From a virus, in the IMG/VR virus record IMGVR_UViG_3300001373_000002, positions 49,328 to 113,327 of that record: a stretch of DNA of 64,000 nt. One strand, written 5' to 3'. The position numbers and the translations under genes are program-made. The notes under the pieces are model-generated. The model was not told the origin of the DNA, did not search any database, and saw only the letters and a list, made by a program, of their open reading frames with translations. Numbering within the stretch: the first letter of the stretch is position 1; each line of letters begins with the position of its first letter. Positions 21,444-55,891 of this stretch are shown here, piece after piece.

Positions 21444-21596
21444 AATTCCTCCTATTTAATTAATTTGTTGGCATAAAATTAAGACCATCCAAAATATATC
21501 AATATATAACTCTTTGGTCTTATTGTGCCTAAACACAGAGTTTTCATCATATGGGTTTTGTTTGCTGTTAGAATCCTATACAAGATTCGTAATATA
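21444..21596 (-). other. 153-base gap with structured RNA elements
   Basis: No gene. It holds a 7-bp inverted repeat AAGACCA/TGGTCTT spaced widely (21481 to about 21521) and, at 21540-21588, a copy-like element of the CAGCAA hairpin family (separate entry). Directly downstream of the DUF2828 gene. Confidence 0.5.
21540..21588 (-). ncRNA. CAGCAA element F, apparently permuted copy of the hairpin RNA
   Basis: On the minus strand the core AACAGCAAACAAAACCC, then CATATGATGAAAA, resembles the core of the four 23-kb modules. The strands that should close the outer stem (GAAUCUU and AGGAUUC) both lie on its 5' side, so they pair with each other rather than enclosing the core. Either a degenerate or a circularly permuted copy. 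Confidence 0.4.
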
Positions 21597-23102
21597 TTAC
21601 ATAATCTCTTTTAAAATATCTTCTAATGGCTGATATCTTTCAGAGTTAAGTACGTCTAACAATACTTCATATGGATCCATTTTGTCAGATAACACCATCT
21701 TGAAAGTGTTTACTGAAAATCCACTTACTAAGGCAACTCCAAGTTCATTTTGAATTACTGGAATAGTACTGCTTCTTGAACATACATTCCAAAATACCAA
21801 CCTTGGCATATTATATCCATGATCTTTGAAATCTTGTGTTAGCTTGTCAAAGATTCTTACTTCTGCATTTTCTTTGCATTCGTCAAATTCCATATCGGAT
21901 ATAACCAAAATATTACTTGGCAAATCCTCTTGTTTCATATTGCCATTAATCGCAGTGTCGAGAATAAGCTTAAACACAGCCTCGATGTCGGTGTTACTTA
22001 CTTCCCATTCATCATTAGCTCTGTGAAGTTTTGCCAATAATGAATCGCGTCCGCTTAAATCGACAAGCTGAGGTTTACTTGAAAACGTAATAAACTTATC
22101 CTTAAACTCTCCACTACACCTTTCTGAAAAATATATAGAAAGTGAAGTAGCTACATCGTGTGCAGTTACAGTGGTATTTCCTACACTTGTACCCATACTA
22201 CCCGAACCATCTCTTACGACAATTGTATTCGAATTTCCATCAACAATATCTTTCTGATTAGCCCACAACATTTCAAGATTACTGTCTAAGTCTGTGCGAT
22301 ACTCACTTTTATACCTAGAAACTATCTCGTATGGCATAAGAACTCCAGCGTTAACAGTCTCTTCTCCACTTTTAACCTTCTCTATAAACTCTGAACGCCT
22401 TGCTTCGTCATGCTTATAGAACGCTGCGTTGTAAAGAAGATTATTCTTTGATGTAATTGTCTTGTAGTTAATTTCATCCCATCTTCCACTACACATTTTA
22501 ACTTCTACCACGTCGATATATCTTCTAAGACTTGATAATGCTTTTCTATATTCCTTTTCAGTAAGTCCAAGATATCCGCTTACAATTTTTCCAAGTCTCT
22601 TAGTATTCTTAGAGCTTGCATTAATAGATGGTAGCCACTTACCAAGCAATGAAACTTCTTGATCATTGTCTAAAGCATTAAGATCTTGATCAAGAGTACG
22701 TTTGATCATTGATAATACTAATTCTGACAACTTTGTGTCTAGTAAGCATAAAATGTCGTCGAATCTTCCATAGAAAGGAATAAACTTAATTAAATCCTTT
22801 ACCACTTCTTTGTTGTTTTCAGCCAAATAGCAAATAATAATCTTGAACAAATTTCTTTCTCCTAGTCCTTCTCTTATATCTCTGGCGTAAAATAACCACT
22901 TGATTGAATTCTTTGCATCTTCGTCATAAGCCTTAACAAAAGATTTGATAATTTCTTCACTCGTAGAATTTCTAAATGAAGAAACTTTAAAATTTAAATC
23001 CAATAAATATTTTCCAGTAGTCTTATATCCTAAACCACCATTCTCTGTGATACTAAAATTGTTATCTAAATCTAACTGTTTTTCTAATTTTGTAATAAAC
23101 AT
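21597..23102 (-). CDS. DUF2828 protein: helical domain plus von Willebrand A domain (Ro60-like architecture)
   Basis: 501 residues. N-terminal helical half with LFYARDIREGLGERNLFK, GRFDDILCLL, and the characteristic TEKEYRKALSSLRRYIDVVE, then GRWDEINY and YNAAFYKHDEARR, which I recognise as DUF2828. The C-terminal half is a vWA domain with an intact metal-binding DGSGSM at residues 298-303. This helical-plus-vWA layout parallels TROVE/Ro60, the RNA-binding ring that carries Y RNAs; that link is inference. A tRNA-like RNA and four hairpin RNAs lie directly upstream on the same strand, and a related element directly downstream. AGAGGAAG precedes the ATG. Confidence 0.85.
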   Translation of the reverse strand: MFITKLEKQLDLDNNFSITENGGLGYKTTGKYLLDLNFKVSSFRNSTSEEIIKSFVKAYDEDAKNSIKWLFYARDIREGLGERNLFKIIICYLAENNKEVVKDLIKFIPFYGRFDDILCLLDTKLSELVLSMIKRTLDQDLNALDNDQEVSLLGKWLPSINASSKNTKRLGKIVSGYLGLTEKEYRKALSSLRRYIDVVEVKMCSGRWDEINYKTITSKNNLLYNAAFYKHDEARRSEFIEKVKSGEETVNAGVLMPYEIVSRYKSEYRTDLDSNLEMLWANQKDIVDGNSNTIVVRDGSGSMGTSVGNTTVTAHDVATSLSIYFSERCSGEFKDKFITFSSKPQLVDLSGRDSLLAKLHRANDEWEVSNTDIEAVFKLILDTAINGNMKQEDLPSNILVISDMEFDECKENAEVRIFDKLTQDFKDHGYNMPRLVFWNVCSRSSTIPVIQNELGVALVSGFSVNTFKMVLSDKMDPYEVLLDVLNSERYQPLEDILKEIM

Positions 23103-23141
23103 AATCTTCCTCTTTTCTTTTCATTTTTTTATTTAATCACT

Positions 23142-23190
23142 AGATACCATATTCATCGCATATGATTTTTTTAATTTGCTGCGTGTACCT
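23142..23190 (-). ncRNA. CAGCAA hairpin RNA module E
   Basis: On the minus strand a 7-bp stem (UAGGUAC/GUAUCUA) encloses ACGCAGCAAAUUAAAAAAAU and an inner hairpin CAUAU-GCGAUGA-AUAUG. The wobble pair in the outer stem forms only in minus-strand RNA. Last module before the DUF2828 gene. Confidence 0.6.
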
Positions 23191-23217
23191 ATGATTATGT
23201 TTTATTTTTTACTTACA

Positions 23218-23265
23218 AGATGCCATATTTCATCGCATATGATTTTTAATTTGCTGTTAACATCT
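23218..23265 (-). ncRNA. CAGCAA hairpin RNA module D
   Basis: Outer stem AAGAUGU/GCAUCUU (seven pairs with one U-G), then UAACAGCAAAUUAAAAAU and inner hairpin CAUAU-GCGAUGAA-AUAUG stacked on the 3' strand. Lies four bases after the tRNA-like RNA. Confidence 0.6.
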
Positions 23266-23268
23266 TAA

Positions 23269-23380
23269 TCGACACAGTAGGGCTCGAACCTACGACATAT
23301 AGTTTTCTTTTTTATTGCTGTATAAATATTTTACAATATTTTAAATTTTGCTATCGCTCTCCCAGCTGAGCTATGTGTCG
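23269..23380 (-). ncRNA. tRNA-like RNA with expanded anticodon arm
   Basis: About 112 nt. Perfect 7-bp acceptor stem (CGACACA/TGTGTCG), D arm GCTC/GAGC enclosing AGCTGGGA, and T arm GTAGG-TTCGAGC-CCTAC are all intact, with A as discriminator and no encoded CCA. Between D and T arms there are 62 nt instead of about 23. Only a 4-bp ATAG/CTAT anticodon-stem remnant fits, closing a loop of nearly 50 nt that holds an AAATATT/AATATTT hairpin and an ACAGCAA like that of the neighbouring modules. It therefore cannot be a normal tRNA. Alternatives: a tRNA split by an insertion, or a Y-RNA-type mimic. Confidence 0.75.
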
Positions 23381-23388
23381 AATCTACT

Positions 23389-23437
23389 AGATGCGCTTTA
23401 ACTTTAAAATAGTTTTTTTAATTTGCTGCTTACATCT
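23389..23437 (-). ncRNA. CAGCAA hairpin RNA module B
   Basis: Outer stem UAGAUGU/GCAUCUA, then AAGCAGCAAAUUAAAAA and a different inner hairpin, AACU-AUUUUAA-AGUU. The inner stem sequence has changed but pairing is kept. Lies just before the tRNA-like RNA. Confidence 0.6.
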
Positions 23438-23448
23438 ATTTTTTTACA

Positions 23449-23499
23449 AGATACGTTATTTTCATCGCATATGATTTTTTTAATTTGCTGCGTGTACCT
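23449..23499 (-). ncRNA. CAGCAA hairpin RNA module A
   Basis: Outer stem AAGGUAC/GUAUCUU with one G-U, then ACGCAGCAAAUUAAAAAAAU, CAUAUGCGAUGAAAA. It begins about eleven bases after the -10 of the promoter at 23510-23538, so it would be at the very 5' end of that transcript. Confidence 0.6.
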
Positions 23500-23509
23500 T
23501 ACTTTAATC

Positions 23510-23538
23510 ATTATATCATACTTATTTTTGCTTGTCAA
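23510..23538 (-). promoter_or_regulatory. perfect consensus promoter driving the RNA array (leftward)
   Basis: TTGACA (23538-23533), 17-base spacer ending TGA, TATAAT (23515-23510), with seven A's upstream. Transcription would begin right at module A. Confidence 0.88.
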
Positions 23539-23589
23539 CACTTTTTTTATTTATTTTTTTATTTAATTTGCATCAACTACTATAAAAAT

Positions 23590-23618
23590 ATTATATCATG
23601 TATATTTCAAGATGTCAA
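23590..23618 (-). promoter_or_regulatory. second perfect consensus promoter (leftward)
   Basis: TTGACA (23618-23613), 17-base spacer ending TGA, TATAAT (23595-23590), preceded by an A-tract. It lies between the Thg1-like gene and the first RNA promoter, so the RNA array has two promoters of its own. Confidence 0.85.
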
Positions 23619-23626
23619 TACTTTTT

Positions 23627-24349
23627 TTAAATTATTACTAAGTTATTTATATAATCTCTATTCTTTGTGAATATTGGTATTTCGTTATCGATCACCCATT
23701 CGCCAAGTCCGTTTCTTATGGCGCAAGATCCTCTTTTGAAACTAGTCTCGACATTATTCCAATTAATATCCTTCTCCATCAACATATCTTGTACCTCCGA
23801 CGTATTCTTAAATTGTAAAGACTTGTGAGAAAATACCGACTGAGCCAATCCATTTATACTATTCCTTGTGGCATCTTGCTGTCGCTAAACTAAGCAGTTA
23901 GCAGCGTCTCCTTTTGGTATGTTGAAAACTCTTGAGTCAAATGTAGCACTCTTAAGTTTTTCATATTTATCTATATTGCAACCGTCTATTCTACTACATA
24001 TACTCTTATTAAATTCCAAAGTAGCAATAGAAGCTGAAACGCTTACCATCTTTTGGATATTATTACTAAACCAAGGCTGAGTTTCAAGTCTAAAATAATC
24101 CACTATCAATAGCGTTATTTCGTCAGACTGTGTATACCCAAGCACGCAACCTTGTATTTTCTTGCACAATTGTAGCATCGTATCTTGCATCGCACCAGAT
24201 AAAACTGTGTCGTATGGACGATCTATTCCTTTGGCTAAAGTGTGAAACGCACAGCCGTCAAGTCTTATAATGACTGGAGTTCGTCTCATTAATTCTCCAT
24301 TACTAACTCTTTCATAAGCCTTCATTCTATCTCCTAGCGAATCTACCAT
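23627..24349 (-). pseudogene. Thg1-like 3'-5' RNA polymerase (tRNA-His guanylyltransferase family), interrupted by an in-frame TAG
   Basis: 241 codons in one frame with a single TAG at codon 155 (23887-23885). N-terminal motifs are intact: IIRLDGCAFHTLAKG with Asp31, and GYTQSDEITLL with Asp76-Glu77, the three metal ligands at nearly the same numbers as in human THG1. The TAG sits in CLV-stop-RQQDATRNSI, where relatives carry tryptophan (WRQQDATRNSI), so one base (TGG to TAG) explains it. The remaining 86 codons stay conserved (FSHKSLQFKNTSEVQDML, then KRGSC and DNEIPIFT). Family members add nucleotides to tRNA 5' ends; phage and bacterial forms are linked to tRNA repair. Either a recent nonsense mutation or readthrough. 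Confidence 0.9.
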
Positions 24350-26417: not shown

Positions 26418-27863
26418 TTAATCCCTCTTCTCTGATTTTTCATTTTGTGAATCGAAACACTCTTGACATATCACTCTCTCCGTATATGAGCCTACATCAT
26501 TCATTGTTTTTCCGCAATAAACACATTTTGCATCAACTCCTATATCAAATACTGCGTCTTTATCTATGTCGACAGATTCTGAATGAGCTATTGACACATG
26601 CTCATCTCTTACGGCATCCCTATAAATTGTTGTCGCATAGTTAATTTTACCACCATAACTATTTCTGGTAATCCTCCACTTGTTTATAATGCCTAATTTG
26701 TCGGACATTATCTTTTCTAGCATTTGTCTGACACATTTAGAAATTGATTCATTCTTGCTTGTGAATTGCTTTGAGAATATAGTGCAGCAAGTATTCTTAT
26801 CTAGGTGTATAAATTGTACCCAAGACTTAAATGCTCCGTCAACTGCAAATCCATATTTCTTCTGAGTAGTAATCTCGTTGCCACATGCAAATCCCACCAA
26901 AGTACATTCATCTAACATTCTTCCGATTCCACTAGACACATATCCGTCTATGCCGTGAATAAATCCGTCTAAATCTCCATCACGACACATAATATAATCG
27001 TATGGATCAATAGAAATTGTAACATTTGATTTTACCACTTTTGACTTCATGATATCGTCGAAATCTTTAATGAAGTCTTTATTTTTTACAATATGCCTAA
27101 TAATATCTGAAACCTTGTTAGATTTAACGTATAAGTTTGAAGCTATAAGCCTAATCACATGTCTATCCGTATATCTTATCGAATCTCGTAAAACTTCATC
27201 TGTCTGAAAATTCATCATAAGCGTAGCATATCTAGGATGTTTCATACATAAAGAACTAATCATATTTGCCATTAACGGCTCGTTGATATCGACTTCAACT
27301 TCCTCTGTGACAGATAAATTATTCCCCATCATTACATAAAAATCATATTTAGCCACAGCCCAATCTTTAAGATATTCGTTAACCACATCTTTATTTGGCA
27401 TCTTTTTATTATAACTATTGCTGCCAGCGATTGCAAGTAATTTTTTAAATCTTTTCAAATCAACTTTACTAATCATTTCCTTTATTATCTCTTCATTTTT
27501 TTCGTTTACAATGCTATATTTAGTTGTCGCCAATTTATCACCTTCCTCTTCTTTATTTAAACTATCTTTATACTCGTTAAGAAATTTTAACATTATAATA
27601 CGAGTTGACTCGGTTACAGAATACTCATCTATATTATTTATTGCAAAATCTATCTCTTCTTCTGTAGGAAAATATCTCTCAAAGCTATTAATTCGAACTA
27701 TACTCCACCATTCTAAACCTACTTCATTATTCCTAGAGCTTATAGTTACCATTCCTCCTATATCGGTACATAATCCTATGAATTTATTAAATAATGATGT
27801 TTCAGTATAACTATTGTCTATAGCTCTCCAGAACTTTCCTATGTATCTATCCCACTTATCCAT
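26418..27863 (-). CDS. large conserved phage protein with C-terminal zinc ribbon (paralogue 1)
   Basis: 481 residues. Similar to the next gene upstream over its whole length: both have SIDPYDY near residue 290, followed by HGIDGY and a D(E/S)xTLxxF region, and a C-terminal CVYCGK...CQEC ribbon (CVYCGKTMNDVG). I know this family only as an uncharacterised one in clostridial phages. The pair probably arose by duplication; both start within a few bases of the previous stop. Confidence 0.75.
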   Translation of the reverse strand: MDKWDRYIGKFWRAIDNSYTETSLFNKFIGLCTDIGGMVTISSRNNEVGLEWWSIVRINSFERYFPTEEEIDFAINNIDEYSVTESTRIIMLKFLNEYKDSLNKEEEGDKLATTKYSIVNEKNEEIIKEMISKVDLKRFKKLLAIAGSNSYNKKMPNKDVVNEYLKDWAVAKYDFYVMMGNNLSVTEEVEVDINEPLMANMISSLCMKHPRYATLMMNFQTDEVLRDSIRYTDRHVIRLIASNLYVKSNKVSDIIRHIVKNKDFIKDFDDIMKSKVVKSNVTISIDPYDYIMCRDGDLDGFIHGIDGYVSSGIGRMLDECTLVGFACGNEITTQKKYGFAVDGAFKSWVQFIHLDKNTCCTIFSKQFTSKNESISKCVRQMLEKIMSDKLGIINKWRITRNSYGGKINYATTIYRDAVRDEHVSIAHSESVDIDKDAVFDIGVDAKCVYCGKTMNDVGSYTERVICQECFDSQNEKSEKRD

Positions 27864-27872
27864 TATCTCCTC

Positions 27873-29351
27873 CTAATAATCATCATCGTCATCGTCATCG
27901 TCTCCGTTACAAGAACGACATGACACTCTACTGCTGCTATTCTTCATTATTTTGCCACAATACACACAAGGAGCATCTTTGCCTACATTTACACATCCAA
28001 GCGATTCGGAATTTTCAGGATGCGAAGATATATGGTCATATCCATGCAATACGTCATGATATCCTAGGTTGCTTATATCATTGTATTCAAATGGCAACTC
28101 ACTATTATAGCTTTGGTAGTATGCGTCAACTCCAAAATAATCATTTATACTTTTAAACATCAACTTCCTTACTTCTGACGACAATTCTTCTGACTTATTC
28201 GGGTATTGTCTGCTAAAAATAACAGAACATGATTTTTTATCCATATACACACATTGTCTCCAATATTTTGAATTTCCAATAAACTCAAACCCTAAAATAT
28301 TATATCTGTAATTTTCGCCATTTTCTCGATAGGCTATCAATGTACTTTCGTCGGTCATATAACTCACCATTCCAGTTGAATAACATCCATCAATAATATT
28401 ATGGCATGAATCCCAATTATGTTTGTTGGTAGACATTGTAAGATAATCGTATGGATCAATAGAAATTACAATTTTACCTTTTACTTTCTTGTTTTGCATT
28501 GATACAGATAAATCGCTATTAAACTTACCATCTTCGTGCAGTCTTGCCATAAATGACGATACTCTTCCGCCAATCTTAAATAGCTTTGGCATATATCTTG
28601 AAAATAAATCGTGAAATTCCATTTTATTGTTTATTAATTCTTTGCTTTTGAACGCATCTAAGTTACATGCCATTTCTGGATATCTCATCTGCAACTTTTC
28701 AATCTCTTTTTTCATTTCACTTTCGTCCATGGAGATATCTACTTCTGCTTCAATAGATAATTTATTTCCAAACAAAACATAGAACTCAGCTTTATTTTCA
28801 GCCCAAACATCCAAATACTTACGAACAATATCAGCACTAGCTGCTTTCGATGTGCTTTTAGTACTCCCAGCAATTGACATCATATTGAAAAATCTTTCGT
28901 CGTCAATTTTGCCAATCATTTCTTTTTTTATAGCCGCTTTGTCTTCTAGCGTTATATTATAGCTAAACTTTTCAACTTCTTTTATATCTTCCGCTTTAAA
29001 GTTTTCTTCATTATTTAGATAGTCTTTCAACATATTAATAACGACTGGATATCTTTCAAAATTATTATTCCCTTTGACGAAATCAACATAACTATTCACC
29101 TCGTCTTTTGTCGGATTATAAATATCAAAGCAATTTGAATCTTTATTTCTTACGTCATAACCAACTACATAAGGACTAATATCTAAGCAACTACATACAA
29201 AAATCTTTAAGTCGTAATATATACCTATAAACTTATTCTTCTTATTAGTAACTATAAACTCGCCATTAGAATTTTCATTTGCGATAACTATATTGCCATT
29301 TGTAAACACCTTTCTTTTTAGCGCATCTAACTTTTTAAAAGTTTCTACCAT
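27873..29351 (-). CDS. large conserved phage protein with C-terminal zinc ribbon (paralogue 2)
   Basis: 492 residues. Contains ISIDPYDYLTMSTNKHNWDS, then CHNIIDGCYSTGM and SYMTDESTLIAYR, with a CVYCGK...CRSC ribbon at the end and a run of eight aspartates as the last feature. The central block has conserved C, H and W spacing, suggesting a catalytic or metal-binding site. The aspartate tail is encoded by a GAT/GAC repeat and may vary in length. Confidence 0.78.
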   Translation of the reverse strand: MVETFKKLDALKRKVFTNGNIVIANENSNGEFIVTNKKNKFIGIYYDLKIFVCSCLDISPYVVGYDVRNKDSNCFDIYNPTKDEVNSYVDFVKGNNNFERYPVVINMLKDYLNNEENFKAEDIKEVEKFSYNITLEDKAAIKKEMIGKIDDERFFNMMSIAGSTKSTSKAASADIVRKYLDVWAENKAEFYVLFGNKLSIEAEVDISMDESEMKKEIEKLQMRYPEMACNLDAFKSKELINNKMEFHDLFSRYMPKLFKIGGRVSSFMARLHEDGKFNSDLSVSMQNKKVKGKIVISIDPYDYLTMSTNKHNWDSCHNIIDGCYSTGMVSYMTDESTLIAYRENGENYRYNILGFEFIGNSKYWRQCVYMDKKSCSVIFSRQYPNKSEELSSEVRKLMFKSINDYFGVDAYYQSYNSELPFEYNDISNLGYHDVLHGYDHISSHPENSESLGCVNVGKDAPCVYCGKIMKNSSSRVSCRSCNGDDDDDDDDY

Positions 29352-46603: not shown

Positions 46604-46778
46604 TGTGGCTAATATGGTAATAATGATGGGAGCAATGTTTATGCAAGGAATGTTTGTTGGAATTGCGATTATGATGTTTGTTACAAGAAAAGAAGTGGAT
46701 AAAGCATATCGTGATATTGAAGATATATTTAGCGATATAGAAGTTTTAAAAATAAAAACAAAAGGAGAATTAGAATGA
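46596..46778 (+). CDS. small membrane protein, 60 aa
   Basis: One long hydrophobic N-terminal segment rich in methionine (MVIMMGAMFMQGMFVGIAIM), then an acidic helix DKAYRDIEDIFSDIEVLK. Overlaps both neighbours. Function unknown. Confidence 0.6.
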   Translation: MNSVANMVIMMGAMFMQGMFVGIAIMMFVTRKEVDKAYRDIEDIFSDIEVLKIKTKGELE

Positions 46779-47176
46779 AAGCTTGGGAATTAAAAGAAGG
46801 CGAGATTTATATCTTAGCATCAAAAGACGACCAAAATAATACAGACGATGTGCGTTTTAGGATTGAAGATGGAATTTTACAAACTGACGCAGCCTGCGGC
46901 GATGATTGGTTTGATAGCTATCTGTCATATAACGAGTGCGCACGTCTCGAATTTAGACATCGTGCATCTCAAAAATTGATATCACTGCTAAAACTTGTAG
47001 ATAAAAAATATAAATATATTTCTTCATGTGAAAATAGTTTATTAGTGCTATATGAAGAGTTGTGCGATCAGAATATAACCCCTTATTTATCACTAAAAAT
47101 GTACGGAATCGAAAATCCATTTACGTACGAAGATGGATATATATTAATACAAGATATTATAGATGAAAAGTGGTGA
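46775..47176 (+). CDS. tandem family protein 1 (LKEGEIY family)
   Basis: 133 residues. WELKEGEIYILA at the start, SQKLISLLKLVDKKYKYISS in the middle, PFTYEDGYILIQDII at the end: the three blocks shared by all members of this tandem family (46.8-52.3 kb). AAAGGAG precedes; the ATG overlaps the previous stop. Confidence 0.75.
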   Translation: MKAWELKEGEIYILASKDDQNNTDDVRFRIEDGILQTDAACGDDWFDSYLSYNECARLEFRHRASQKLISLLKLVDKKYKYISSCENSLLVLYEELCDQNITPYLSLKMYGIENPFTYEDGYILIQDIIDEKW

Positions 47177-47613
47177 TCAGAATTAAACTGCACGAGTTAA
47201 AAGAAGGAAAACTATATATAGTGGATTCGTATATTAGCGTGTTTACAGTTATAAATGGACATCTAGAAATGCTATTATGTGCGTCATTCGGAGGTAGGTG
47301 GATTAGATGTGGCGATTTTTTAGGCGATTTTAAGCCATGCGTAAAATGTAGCGAAGAGTTTATAGATTTATTGCGATCGTTACATACAGATTATGAATAT
47401 ATAACAATTAGTAAAGATGGGGTATTAACAGCATACGACAACAGACCGTATATAGTGGATTGCGAATGGGTTTGCGATTGCGAAGATGGTAAATATACTA
47501 AAATTTTGATTAGCTACGAAATTCCATTTACCGATGTGGATGAAGTGATGGATATAGGAGATATTTTATTAAGAGAAACAACTATAGAATACGAAAACTG
47601 GGAAAGGAGTTAA
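47170..47613 (+). CDS. tandem family protein 2
   Basis: Start is one of two adjacent GTG codons (47170 or 47173), coupled to the previous TGA. LHELKEGKLYIVD, then SEEFIDLLRSLHTDYEYITI, SKDGVLTAYDNRPYIVD, PFTDVDEVMDIGDILL. All family blocks intact. Confidence 0.75.
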   Translation: MVIRIKLHELKEGKLYIVDSYISVFTVINGHLEMLLCASFGGRWIRCGDFLGDFKPCVKCSEEFIDLLRSLHTDYEYITISKDGVLTAYDNRPYIVDCEWVCDCEDGKYTKILISYEIPFTDVDEVMDIGDILLRETTIEYENWERS

Positions 47614-47614
47614 T

Positions 47615-48031
47615 ATGAGGTTTAGTGAATTAAAAGAAACGAATCTATATGAAGCTAGTGGATATGTTAGCATTTTTAGACTCAAAAATGGGCGATTAGA
47701 ATTAGGTCGGTGTAATAGCTGGAAAGAAGATGGTCTTTATTTATACCCAATTCCCGAGATGGAGTTTAGACTGTATGTAAAACTTGAGGACGAATTGATG
47801 GAACTTTTAGAATCTTTACGAGAGAGTTATAATTATATGACAATCAGTGAAGATGGAGTGCTTGAAGTGTTTGAGTGTATGCCACACATTGTTGATGGAA
47901 TATTGAAGCAAAGTTGTGAAGATTTTAAACATGCTCGCTTTTTACCAAATGTCGAAACTCGATCCGTAGACATATCACATATAGGCGATTTTATAGCAAG
48001 AGAAAAATATAGGCAAGGAGCTGATTTGTAG
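47615..48031 (+). CDS. tandem family protein 3
   Basis: FSELKETNLYEASGYVSIF, EDELMELLESLRESYNYMTI, SEDGVLEVFECMPHIVDG. AAAGGAG precedes the ATG. Ends QGADL and TAG, directly followed by the next ATG. Confidence 0.75.
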   Translation: MRFSELKETNLYEASGYVSIFRLKNGRLELGRCNSWKEDGLYLYPIPEMEFRLYVKLEDELMELLESLRESYNYMTISEDGVLEVFECMPHIVDGILKQSCEDFKHARFLPNVETRSVDISHIGDFIAREKYRQGADL

Positions 48032-48472
48032 ATGAAGTTTTGCGAGTTGGAAGAAGGAAAACTATATAGATCTGACACGAGTATTAGAATTTTTAGACTT
48101 AATCATGGTGAACTTGAAATGGCAATAACTGGAAATACTTGGGTAAAATCATACCTATTTCAAACTACCATCGACAGAATTAACTTTAGACCATATATTA
48201 AGATTAAAGGCGAATTAATGGAATTATTTGAGTCTTTGAACAATGATTATAATTATATGGCGGTTAGCGAAGATGGAATTGTAGAAGTTTGGAAGGAATA
48301 TCCATCTGTCATAAACGAAGATGGCGACCGAGAACTAATATTAGAAGATTGCGAATATGCTCGTCTATTGCCTAATTTAGATATTCCATTTATAACTAAG
48401 AGTTACGTTATAAAGATAAGTAATTTTATAGAAAGCGAAAGAGAAAAGTTTGTAAAAGGATGTGATTTATAG
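48032..48472 (+). CDS. tandem family protein 4
   Basis: FCELEEGKLYRSDTSIRIF, KGELMELFESLNNDYNYMAV, SEDGIVEVWKEYPSVI. Ends KGCDL. Its ATG follows the TAG of protein 3 without a gap. Confidence 0.75.
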   Translation: MKFCELEEGKLYRSDTSIRIFRLNHGELEMAITGNTWVKSYLFQTTIDRINFRPYIKIKGELMELFESLNNDYNYMAVSEDGIVEVWKEYPSVINEDGDRELILEDCEYARLLPNLDIPFITKSYVIKISNFIESEREKFVKGCDL

Positions 48473-48898
48473 GTGAATATATACGAATTAGAAGAAGGAT
48501 ATTTGTACAAAACCGACTCATCTGTTGATGTTTTCAGAGTTAAGGATGGACATTTAGAAAAATACGAGTCTAAAACTTGGCAAGAATCTTGGTTTGGCAT
48601 AGATCGTGCTGTTGATTTAGAATTTGAAGTATATACAAGACTAAAAGATGAATTTGTTGAATTACTAGAATCCTTATACCAAAGTTATAGCTATATAACA
48701 GTTAGTGATGACGGTGTGCTTGAAGCTTACGTAAGTAAACCACACGTAATAGATGGCAGATGGGAATGTAGATACCAACATCATAAATGCACTCATATTT
48801 TACTTAACGTAGACACTCCATTTACAAGCAAAGATGGTGCTATGTATATATGGAAAATTTTATTAAGAGAAGAAACTAACGAAGGATGTGATTTATAG
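48473..48898 (+). CDS. tandem family protein 5
   Basis: GTG start right after TAG. IYELEEGYLYKTDSSVDVF, DEFVELLESLYQSYSYITV, SDDGVLEAYVSKPHVIDG, PFTSKDGAMYIWKILL; ends EGCDL like protein 4. Confidence 0.75.
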   Translation: MNIYELEEGYLYKTDSSVDVFRVKDGHLEKYESKTWQESWFGIDRAVDLEFEVYTRLKDEFVELLESLYQSYSYITVSDDGVLEAYVSKPHVIDGRWECRYQHHKCTHILLNVDTPFTSKDGAMYIWKILLREETNEGCDL

Positions 48899-55370: not shown

Positions 55371-55589
55371 GACGTTTTTAAACTTTTAGCTACATAGGAA
55401 ACAATAAAACTAATATACAAATAATACGTAAGTATGGGTAGCTGGTCTATCTCATCCCCCAAAATAATATCCGAATAATTCTAATTTAATTATAATATAT
55501 TATTAATAGTTTGCTTGTCCTATTAAAAAAAGATAAGCCAACGTAGAAAATGCGGACTTCGTAAATATCCGCTAAACTTAAAAATAATT
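55371..55589. other. non-coding spacer
   Basis: AT-rich, no frame with a ribosome site, no recognisable motif. Part of the 0.8-kb gap between the RNA polymerase gene and the next CDS. Confidence 0.5.
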
Positions 55590-55647
55590 AGATGCAAACA
55601 GCAATCATACAAGAGTTAGCCGTTTGAGCCAATTTAAAATAGTATCT
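55590..55647 (+). ncRNA. CAGCAA hairpin RNA module I
   Basis: Outer stem UAGAUGC/GUAUCUA with one G-U, then AAACAGCAAUCAUAC and a hairpin around UUAGCCGUUUGAGCCAA. Same CAGCAA position as the 23-kb modules, now on the plus strand. Confidence 0.5.
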
Positions 55648-55665
55648 AGTATTATATAACACGTT

Positions 55666-55717
55666 AAGATATCCACAGCAACATTAAAATCATATAGGAT
55701 GAAAAATATGATATCTT
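55666..55717 (+). ncRNA. CAGCAA hairpin RNA module G
   Basis: Perfect AAGATATC/GATATCTT stem, then CACAGCAACAUUAAAAU and inner hairpin CAUAU-AGGAUGAAAA-AUAUG. Close match to module D over its length. Confidence 0.65.
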
Positions 55718-55733
55718 GTAGTGTAAAGTATTT

Positions 55734-55811
55734 AGGTGTCAGCAGCAATTATAAGATTTTCTAAAGTCTTGACTATACATTTATGCATAGTTTAGCAAAT
55801 CAACGACACCT
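55734..55811 (+). ncRNA. CAGCAA hairpin RNA module H, long form
   Basis: Outer stem UAGGUGUC/GACACCUA (8 bp; the U-A pair lies just outside the listed range), AGCAGCAAUUAUAAG, then two internal hairpins (AAGA/UCUU and CUAUACAU/AUGCAUAG). Ends eight bases before tRNA-Asn. Confidence 0.55.
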
Positions 55812-55819
55812 AGTAATAA

Positions 55820-55891
55820 TACCTCGTAGCTCAATGGTAGAGCGTCAAGCTGTTAACTTGGATGTTACAGGTTCGAGTCCTGTCGTGGTAG
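55820..55891 (+). tRNA. tRNA-Asn(GTT)
   Basis: 72 nt, loop CTGTTAA gives anticodon GTT. D arm GCTC/GAGC, T arm ACAGG-TTCGAGT-CCTGT. Acceptor stem TACCTCG/CGTGGTA with one T-T mismatch. CCA not encoded, as usual in Firmicute phages. Confidence 0.9.

What the first reader, a model, noticed from the sequence alone, without database searches (positions are those of the whole stretch)
21480..24349. A Ro60-like protein, a tRNA-like RNA, an RNA-hairpin array and a Thg1-like RNA polymerase encoded together
Within 2.9 kb on one strand the phage encodes a DUF2828 protein (helical half plus vWA with intact DGSGSM, the same layout as Ro60), a tRNA-like RNA whose anticodon arm is expanded, four small hairpin RNAs plus a downstream one, and a Thg1-like 3'-5' nucleotide-adding enzyme. 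The RNA block has two perfect promoters of its own. In bacteria, Ro60/Rsr is typically genetically linked to tRNA-mimicking Y RNAs and RNA-repair enzymes. That parallel suggests a phage RNP for RNA quality control, tRNA repair, or shielding tRNA from host nucleases. The parallel is inference; the parts and their arrangement are seen directly.
Basis: partly seen in the sequence, partly recalled or inferred. Interest (0 to 1): 0.92.

Follow-up and report, generated by a model that had tools for sequence, protein, structure and literature searches.

The report
Phage Ro60-like protein with tRNA-mimicking RNAs
This phage encodes a relative of the Ro60 protein together with a set of small RNAs that share one protein-binding element and imitate pieces of tRNA; the same pairing turns up in many unrelated phages and gut bacteria, and it suggests that the complex guards or repairs tRNAs during infection.

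Summary
The DUF2828 protein folds like Ro60: all 13 best PDB matches to its model are Ro60/TROVE. The RNA units share one element: a 7-bp helix, 2-3 nt, then (A/G)CAGCAA. A covariance model built without window sequences picks out exactly four units at 23.1-23.5 kb and three more at 55.6-55.8 kb. The tRNA-like RNA carries the same element as a hairpin in its anticodon arm.

The element lies within 1 kb of DUF2828 in 80/98 phage loci and 68/80 bacterial-genome loci; permuted cores average 3-4. 222/225 are on the DUF2828 strand. Elsewhere the RNAs present tRNA parts: anticodon stem-loops (37/124; shuffles 4.0), permuted YrlA-like tRNA bodies, and tRNAs interrupted in the anticodon stem.

Thg1 is not part of the unit: it is broken by an in-frame TAG and lies near DUF2828 in only 2/98 loci. 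RtcB accompanies DUF2828 in 21/80 bacterial loci.

Best reading: a phage Ro-type ribonucleoprotein displaying tRNA mimics. Binding, expression and the decoy role are inferred.

The parts
21597..23102 (-). DUF2828 protein, Ro60-like: helical N-terminal part plus vWA domain with intact MIDAS (D298-x-S300-x-S302, T371, D403)
   Evidence: Pfam; AlphaFold2 pLDDT 89.2, pTM 0.88; Foldseek top 13 all Ro60/TROVE; MIDAS residues invariant in 46 relatives
23448..23500 (-). Unit U1: AAGGTAC / GTATCTT helix, AC, GCAGCAA, apical UCAU-AUGCG-AUGA
   Evidence: covariance model R1 27.3 bits, E 2.5e-4
23388..23438 (-). Unit U2: TAGATGT helix, GCAGCAA, apical hairpin AACU-AUUUUAA-AGUU that resembles a Lys(UUU) anticodon stem-loop
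   Evidence: R1 21.7 bits, E 0.0074; apical reading is by inspection, single case
23269..23380 (-). tRNA-like RNA in normal tRNA order; acceptor CGACACA/TGTGTCG, D and T arms intact, anticodon loop replaced; no canonical anticodon stem-loop restored by removing the insert
   Evidence: Rfam tRNA 46.4 bits
23315..23341 (-). The shared element inside the tRNA-like RNA: AAATATT-GTAA-AATATTT hairpin, AT, ACAGCAA
23217..23266 (-). Unit U3: AAGATGT helix, TA, ACAGCAA
   Evidence: R1 31.6 bits, E 1.8e-5
23141..23191 (-). Unit U4: TAGGTAC / GTATCTA helix, AC, GCAGCAA
   Evidence: R1 19.7 bits, E 0.024
21562..21588 (-). Downstream unit U5, hairpin form: GAATCTT-GTATA-GGATTC-type hairpin, TA, ACAGCAA
   Evidence: weak with R1 (E about 5)
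23510..23538 (-). Promoter 12/12 with extended -10, its -10 box ending about 9 nt before U1
23590..23618 (-). Second promoter 12/12 with extended -10
55589..55648 (+). Second array, unit 1 (TAGATGC helix, AA, ACAGCAA)
   Evidence: R1 29.7 bits, E 5.7e-5
55666..55717 (+). Second array, unit 2 (AAGATAT / ATATCTT helix, CC, ACAGCAA)
   Evidence: R1 30.7 bits, E 3.1e-5
55733..55812 (+). Second array, unit 3 (TAGGTGT helix, CA, GCAGCAA), 7 nt before tRNA-Asn (55820-55891)
   Evidence: R1 20.8 bits, E 0.012; tRNAs
23627..24349 (-). Thg1-like gene interrupted by in-frame TAG at 23887-23885; neighbour, not judged part of the unit
   Evidence: adjacency not conserved

Best explanation
It is a phage-encoded Ro-type ribonucleoprotein. 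DUF2828 is a Ro60-like protein, and the array encodes its dedicated Y-RNA-like partners. Each RNA carries the same handle, a 7-bp helix whose 5' strand runs into N2-3-(A/G)CAGCAA, which DUF2828 most likely binds (inferred). The rest of each RNA presents a tRNA part: a tRNA body in the tRNA-like RNA, an anticodon-type stem-loop in U2 and in many relatives. The most likely role is to occupy or divert enzymes that attack or process tRNA, such as anticodon nucleases, or to hold damaged tRNA for repair or decay, so that the phage keeps a working tRNA pool. Shown: fold, element, linkage, strand, tRNA mimicry. Inferred: binding, expression, function. My component estimates: Ro-type RNP with these RNAs as partners about 0.9; tRNA-directed role about 0.65; decoy rather than repair or decay about 0.4.
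For: Fold: model pLDDT 89.2, Foldseek top 13 all Ro60/TROVE, E 7e-8 to 2e-4, aligned over nearly the full length. Element: the model finds all seven minimal window units and nothing else below E 2.7. Linkage: 80/98 phage loci against 3.4 for permuted cores; 68/80 genome loci against 4.2; 84 of 84 model hits in genome loci on the DUF2828 strand; within 1 kb in phage loci, 239 ACAGCAA on the sense strand and 6 on the other. Specificity: 77 tRNA-bearing viral stretches chosen without regard to DUF2828 gave 8 hits, 4 of them in the two DUF2828 phages among them. tRNA mimicry: 37/124 minimal units hold a 7-nt-loop anticodon stem-loop against 4.0 in shuffles, replicated 18/47 against 1.4; only 7-nt loops are clearly in excess. 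Removing the insert restores a full anticodon arm in 19/29 interrupted tRNAs against 0.5 expected. RtcB within the same stretch as DUF2828 in 21/80 bacterial loci; tRNA genes in 69/98 phage loci.
Against: No transcript, binding or phenotype data. In the window itself only U2 looks like an anticodon arm; U1, U3 and U4 carry UCAU-AUGCG-AUGA, and the tRNA-like RNA has no canonical anticodon loop. Units were picked partly by their helix, so 100% pairing is partly by construction; permuted cores, strand bias and the independent model answer this. Two contig fragments (L206, L219) have elements without DUF2828 in the fragment. 15 of 98 loci lack the strict element, though some hold variants.
Confidence: 0.62

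Rival explanations
1. RNA quality-control machine as in Deinococcus: the RNAs tether DUF2828 to a nuclease (PNPase) or gate its cavity, and the tRNA-like parts only recruit tRNA-binding host factors.
For: Ro60 fold; Deinococcus Rsr is tethered to PNPase by Y RNA (PMC7790460); permuted tRNA bodies like YrlA in relatives.
Against: Does not explain why so many units carry anticodon stem-loops with varied but canonical anticodons.
Confidence: 0.3
2. tRNA repair: the RNP captures tRNAs cut in the anticodon loop and hands them to RtcB or another ligase; interrupted tRNAs may even be precursors that are spliced.
For: RtcB near DUF2828 in 21/80 bacterial loci and in Listeria P100; the Salmonella rsr-yrlBA-rtcBA operon responds to tRNA halves; complete anticodon arms after insert removal in 19/29.
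Against: RtcB near DUF2828 in only one of the 98 phage and viral loci (P100; the other hit, L004, is outside that set); no splicing endonuclease seen; the window's tRNA-like RNA gives no functional tRNA after removal.
Confidence: 0.25
3. The elements are only cis-regulatory: DUF2828 binds its own leader and trailer to regulate itself.
For: Nearly all lie on the DUF2828 strand, most within 1 kb; the window array is in the 5' leader.
Against: Elements lie both upstream (131) and downstream (78); a second array in the window is 32 kb away on the other strand beside tRNA genes; interiors imitate tRNA.
Confidence: 0.12
4. The repeat array is a decoy of a type III toxin-antitoxin RNA or of CRISPR repeats.
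For: Short A-rich repeats upstream of a protein gene.
Against: No toxin gene seen; spacing irregular; the same element follows DUF2828 across unrelated phages and bacteria; no Rfam antitoxin match.
Confidence: 0.02

Closest known systems
Ro60 / Rsr (TROVE family) ribonucleoproteins, including the Ro60 of Thermus phage phiLo (PDB 9l5y)
   Same: Fold over the full length, vWA with MIDAS, partner small RNAs encoded beside it
   Different: Sequence family is DUF2828, not TROVE (no TROVE match at E 0.1); profile match to Ro60/TROVE chains only E 0.07-0.26; about 11-16% identity in structure alignment
YrlA bacterial Y RNA (RF02553)
   Same: Relatives have a circularly permuted tRNA body (T arm, closed acceptor, D arm) inside the protein-binding stem; full-length but weak match in Bacillus phage FADO (20.1 bits)
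   Different: Below the gathering score of 69; the protein-binding end is a 7-bp helix plus ACAGCAA, not the YrlA stem; the window's tRNA-like RNA is not permuted; many units have no tRNA body but an anticodon stem-loop
Salmonella rsr-yrlBA-rtcBA RNA-repair operon (PMC7790460)
   Same: Ro-like protein, Y-like RNAs and RtcB together, as in 21/80 bacterial DUF2828 loci
   Different: The window has no RtcB next to DUF2828; the protein family and the RNA signature differ
Phage tRNAs that evade anticodon nucleases such as PARIS AriB (PMC11455837)
   Same: Phage-encoded RNAs with anticodon arms; Lys(UUU) is the most frequent displayed here and tRNA-Lys is the AriB target
   Different: Those are working, cleavage-resistant tRNAs; these are stem-loops or interrupted tRNAs on a Ro-binding handle

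Membership tests
Ro60/TROVE | Ro60 fold: helical-repeat part plus vWA | tested here: met
Ro60/TROVE | TROVE sequence profile | tested here: not met
   no TROVE match up to E 0.1; it is DUF2828
Ro60/TROVE | Intact MIDAS (DxSxS, T, D) | tested here: met
   D298, S300, S302, T371, D403 invariant in 46 sequences
Ro60/TROVE | Ring with a cavity that binds single-stranded RNA ends | not testable with these tools
   coordinates of the model not available; only the fold match
Ro60/TROVE | Binds small structured RNAs encoded nearby | tested here: inconclusive
   strong genetic linkage; binding not tested
YrlA Y RNA (RF02553) | Covariance model at gathering score | tested here: not met
   no match in the window or genome record; 20.1 bits in FADO
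YrlA Y RNA (RF02553) | Circularly permuted tRNA body in the Ro-binding stem | tested here: not met
   window tRNA-like RNA is in normal order; permuted forms occur in 19 of 98 other loci
Functional tRNA | Canonical anticodon arm | tested here: not met
   not restored in the window by insert removal
Functional Thg1 | Uninterrupted reading frame with C-terminal domain | tested here: not met
   in-frame TAG

The most novel reading that the evidence does not exclude
DUF2828 proteins are display scaffolds for tRNA decoys. Phages and bacteria hang interchangeable anticodon stem-loops, interrupted tRNAs or permuted tRNA bodies on one common Ro-binding handle, so that anticodon nucleases and other tRNA-directed defences hit the decoy. 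The repertoire of anticodons displayed would then be a record of the nucleases each phage meets.
Probability: 0.33. Interest if true: 0.94.

Novelty: new variant of a known kind. Interest (0 to 1): 0.83.

Why it matters
Why phages carry Ro60-like proteins, and what the tRNA-like domains of bacterial Y RNAs are for, are open questions. A defined RNA handle linked to DUF2828, with anticodon stem-loops on it in a large fraction of cases, turns both into direct tests. The interrupted tRNAs in normal order also suggest how permuted, YrlA-type Y RNAs could have arisen from tRNA. The element matched no Rfam family here, and DUF2828 is annotated only as 'RNA-binding' or 'Ro-like'.

Tried and rejected
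TAG recoding: rejected, TAG ends many normal ORFs. Exact search of viral contigs for window-type units: nothing. YrlA membership: rejected for the window. Alignment A1 was too diverse for the genome scan and could not be folded; closer alignments A2 and A3 were used. Phage K non-coding RNAs as expression evidence: not shown to be linked to DUF2828. T4 tRNA cluster as a control without DUF2828: no convincing element; its stable RNAs (species 1 and 2) do not carry it. T5 and Bxz1 records not held. Thg1 as a partner: rejected on conservation. The papers that first described phage and bacterial Y RNAs (Chen 2014; Sim and Wolin 2018; Sim 2020) were not held, so part of the linkage may already be published.
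Full report
Observation. The window is part of a 113 kb virus record that encodes a YonO-like polymerase of the SPbeta phage type. On the minus strand it holds a 501-aa DUF2828 protein, four repeat units, a tRNA-like RNA (Rfam tRNA, 46.4 bits), and exactly two perfect extended -10 promoters. The nearer promoter would start RNA just before the first unit. The Thg1 frame is interrupted by a TAG at 23887-23885, and TAG is a normal stop in this phage.

The shared element. Reading the minus strand showed that all units have a 7-bp outer helix, and that its 5' strand is followed by 2 nt and (A/G)CAGCAA. The tRNA-like RNA holds the same thing as a hairpin: AAATATT-GTAA-AATATTT, AT, ACAGCAA, placed where the anticodon loop should be. 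The same element was then found beside DUF2828 in phages of Bacillus, Listeria, Enterococcus, Campylobacter, Staphylococcus, Mycobacterium, Aeromonas, Salmonella, Klebsiella and Fusobacterium.

Tests of the element. In 98 DUF2828 loci (18 phage records, 80 IMG/VR contigs) the strict element occurs within 1 kb of DUF2828 in 80; 30 permutations of the core average 3.4 loci, maximum 17. In 80 loci from bacterial genome assemblies it occurs in 68 against 4.2 (one permutation reached 32, perhaps because it matches the same sites in a shifted register, which I did not check). 222 of 225 elements lie on the DUF2828 strand. ACAGCAA itself, before any helix test, occurs 239 times on the sense strand within 1 kb and 6 times on the antisense strand; 77% of the former have the helix, 8% of far antisense ones. 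A covariance model from 42 elements without window sequences finds the seven minimal window units at E 1.8e-5 to 0.024, the next hit being at E 2.7. It gives 84 hits, all on the DUF2828 strand, in 763 kb of genome loci. In 697 kb of tRNA-bearing viral stretches chosen without regard to DUF2828 it gives 8 hits: four belong to two DUF2828 phages, three to two contig fragments without DUF2828 in the fragment, one is marginal. Every helix pair shows changes on both sides, with the caveat that the sequences were chosen for pairing.

What the RNAs display. (1) Minimal units: of 124 non-redundant ones, 37 contain a stem of at least 4 bp with a 7-nt loop that has U33, a purine at 37 and no A34; shuffles give 4.0, maximum 10 in 300. 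7-nt loops are the only loop length clearly above the shuffles. The loops read like real anticodon loops (CUUUUAA, CUGUUAA, CUGCUAA, CUUGAAA, CUCAUAA), with Lys(UUU) the most frequent. The genome set repeats this, 18/47 against 1.4. In the window only U2 (AACU-AUUUUAA-AGUU) is of this sort. (2) Permuted tRNA bodies (T arm, acceptor, D arm) inside the element, 25 in 19 loci; this is the architecture of YrlA, which matches FADO weakly over its full length. (3) tRNAs in normal order with the element as a short-loop hairpin in the anticodon arm, as in the window. In 19 of 29 of these in phage loci, removing the insert restores a 5-bp anticodon arm with U33 and a purine at 37, against 0.5 expected; the insert mostly splits the 5' strand after two or three of its five bases. 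These removals were computed only to test for an anticodon arm. The window's own copy gives no canonical arm and is better read as a tRNA mimic.

The protein. The AlphaFold2 model (46-row alignment from the window and fetched loci) has pLDDT 89.2 and pTM 0.88. The 13 PDB matches with E below 0.001 are all Ro60/TROVE, among them human Ro60, the Ro autoantigen with misfolded RNA, Deinococcus Rsr and the Ro60 of Thermus phage phiLo. Sequence profiles reach them only weakly, and Pfam files the protein as DUF2828, so it looks like a Ro60 in fold but belongs to a separate sequence family. The MIDAS residues are invariant.

Neighbours. tRNA genes lie in 69 of 98 phage loci. RtcB lies in the same stretch in 21 of 80 genome loci, mostly directly downstream of DUF2828, which mirrors the Salmonella rsr-yrlBA-rtcBA operon. 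Thg1 lies within about 5 kb in 2 of 98 phage loci and 1 of 80 genome loci and is far from DUF2828 in FADO, Fusobacterium FNU2 and Serratia BF.

Mechanism. Shown: the fold, the element, its linkage and strand, and the tRNA mimicry. Inferred: that DUF2828 binds the element, by analogy with Ro60 and Y RNA, and that the mimics engage tRNA-directed enzymes. I favour protection of the tRNA pool. The decoy form fits the anticodon stem-loops best; repair or decay fits RtcB and the Deinococcus precedent. PMC7790460 itself proposes that the tRNA-like part of YrlA could inhibit an anticodon nuclease.

Novelty. Ro60-like proteins in phages are known, and from memory Chen et al. 2014 reported Y RNAs in phages; I could not read that paper. 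I did not find described anywhere I could search: the 7-bp/ACAGCAA handle of DUF2828, anticodon stem-loops on it, and normal-order interrupted tRNAs. Hence 'new variant of a known kind'.

Noticed in passing
window 23885-23887 (-): In-frame TAG inside the Thg1-like gene at a residue that is Trp in the relative L005; the frame continues intact after it, so a recent mutation, readthrough or an assembly error.
   Followed up: partly
L112-L191 (bacterial genome contigs): DUF2828 with ACAGCAA elements and RtcB close by, mostly directly downstream, in 21 of 80 loci, chiefly gut Clostridia: a chromosomal or prophage RNA-repair-like operon.
   Followed up: partly
L115:3892-4649: A run of hairpin-form elements about every 185-190 bp in a Clostridiales contig that also holds a second DUF2828 copy (L116).
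   Followed up: no
L192:6909-7172 (T4 70908-71171): T4 stable RNAs species 1 and 2 lie in the tRNA cluster; species 1 ends in a T-arm-like hairpin (CCGGGUUCGAAUCCCGG). They carry no ACAGCAA element.
   Followed up: partly
L015 (Listeria phage P100, NC_007610): tRNAs are annotated on the strand opposite to the one ARAGORN finds: probably an annotation error.
   Followed up: no
L017:7863-7972 (Synechococcus phage B23): Annotated 'tRNA-Undet'; it is a normal-order interrupted tRNA with an ACTGCAA variant of the element.
   Followed up: yes
window 26418-27863 and 27873-29351 (-): Two adjacent proteins with shared motifs (ISIDPYDY, C-terminal zinc-ribbon-like cysteines) and no Pfam match above cut-off.
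   Followed up: no
window 46775-48898 (+): Row of short tandem paralogues beginning with 'ELKEGKLY'-like motifs.
   Followed up: no
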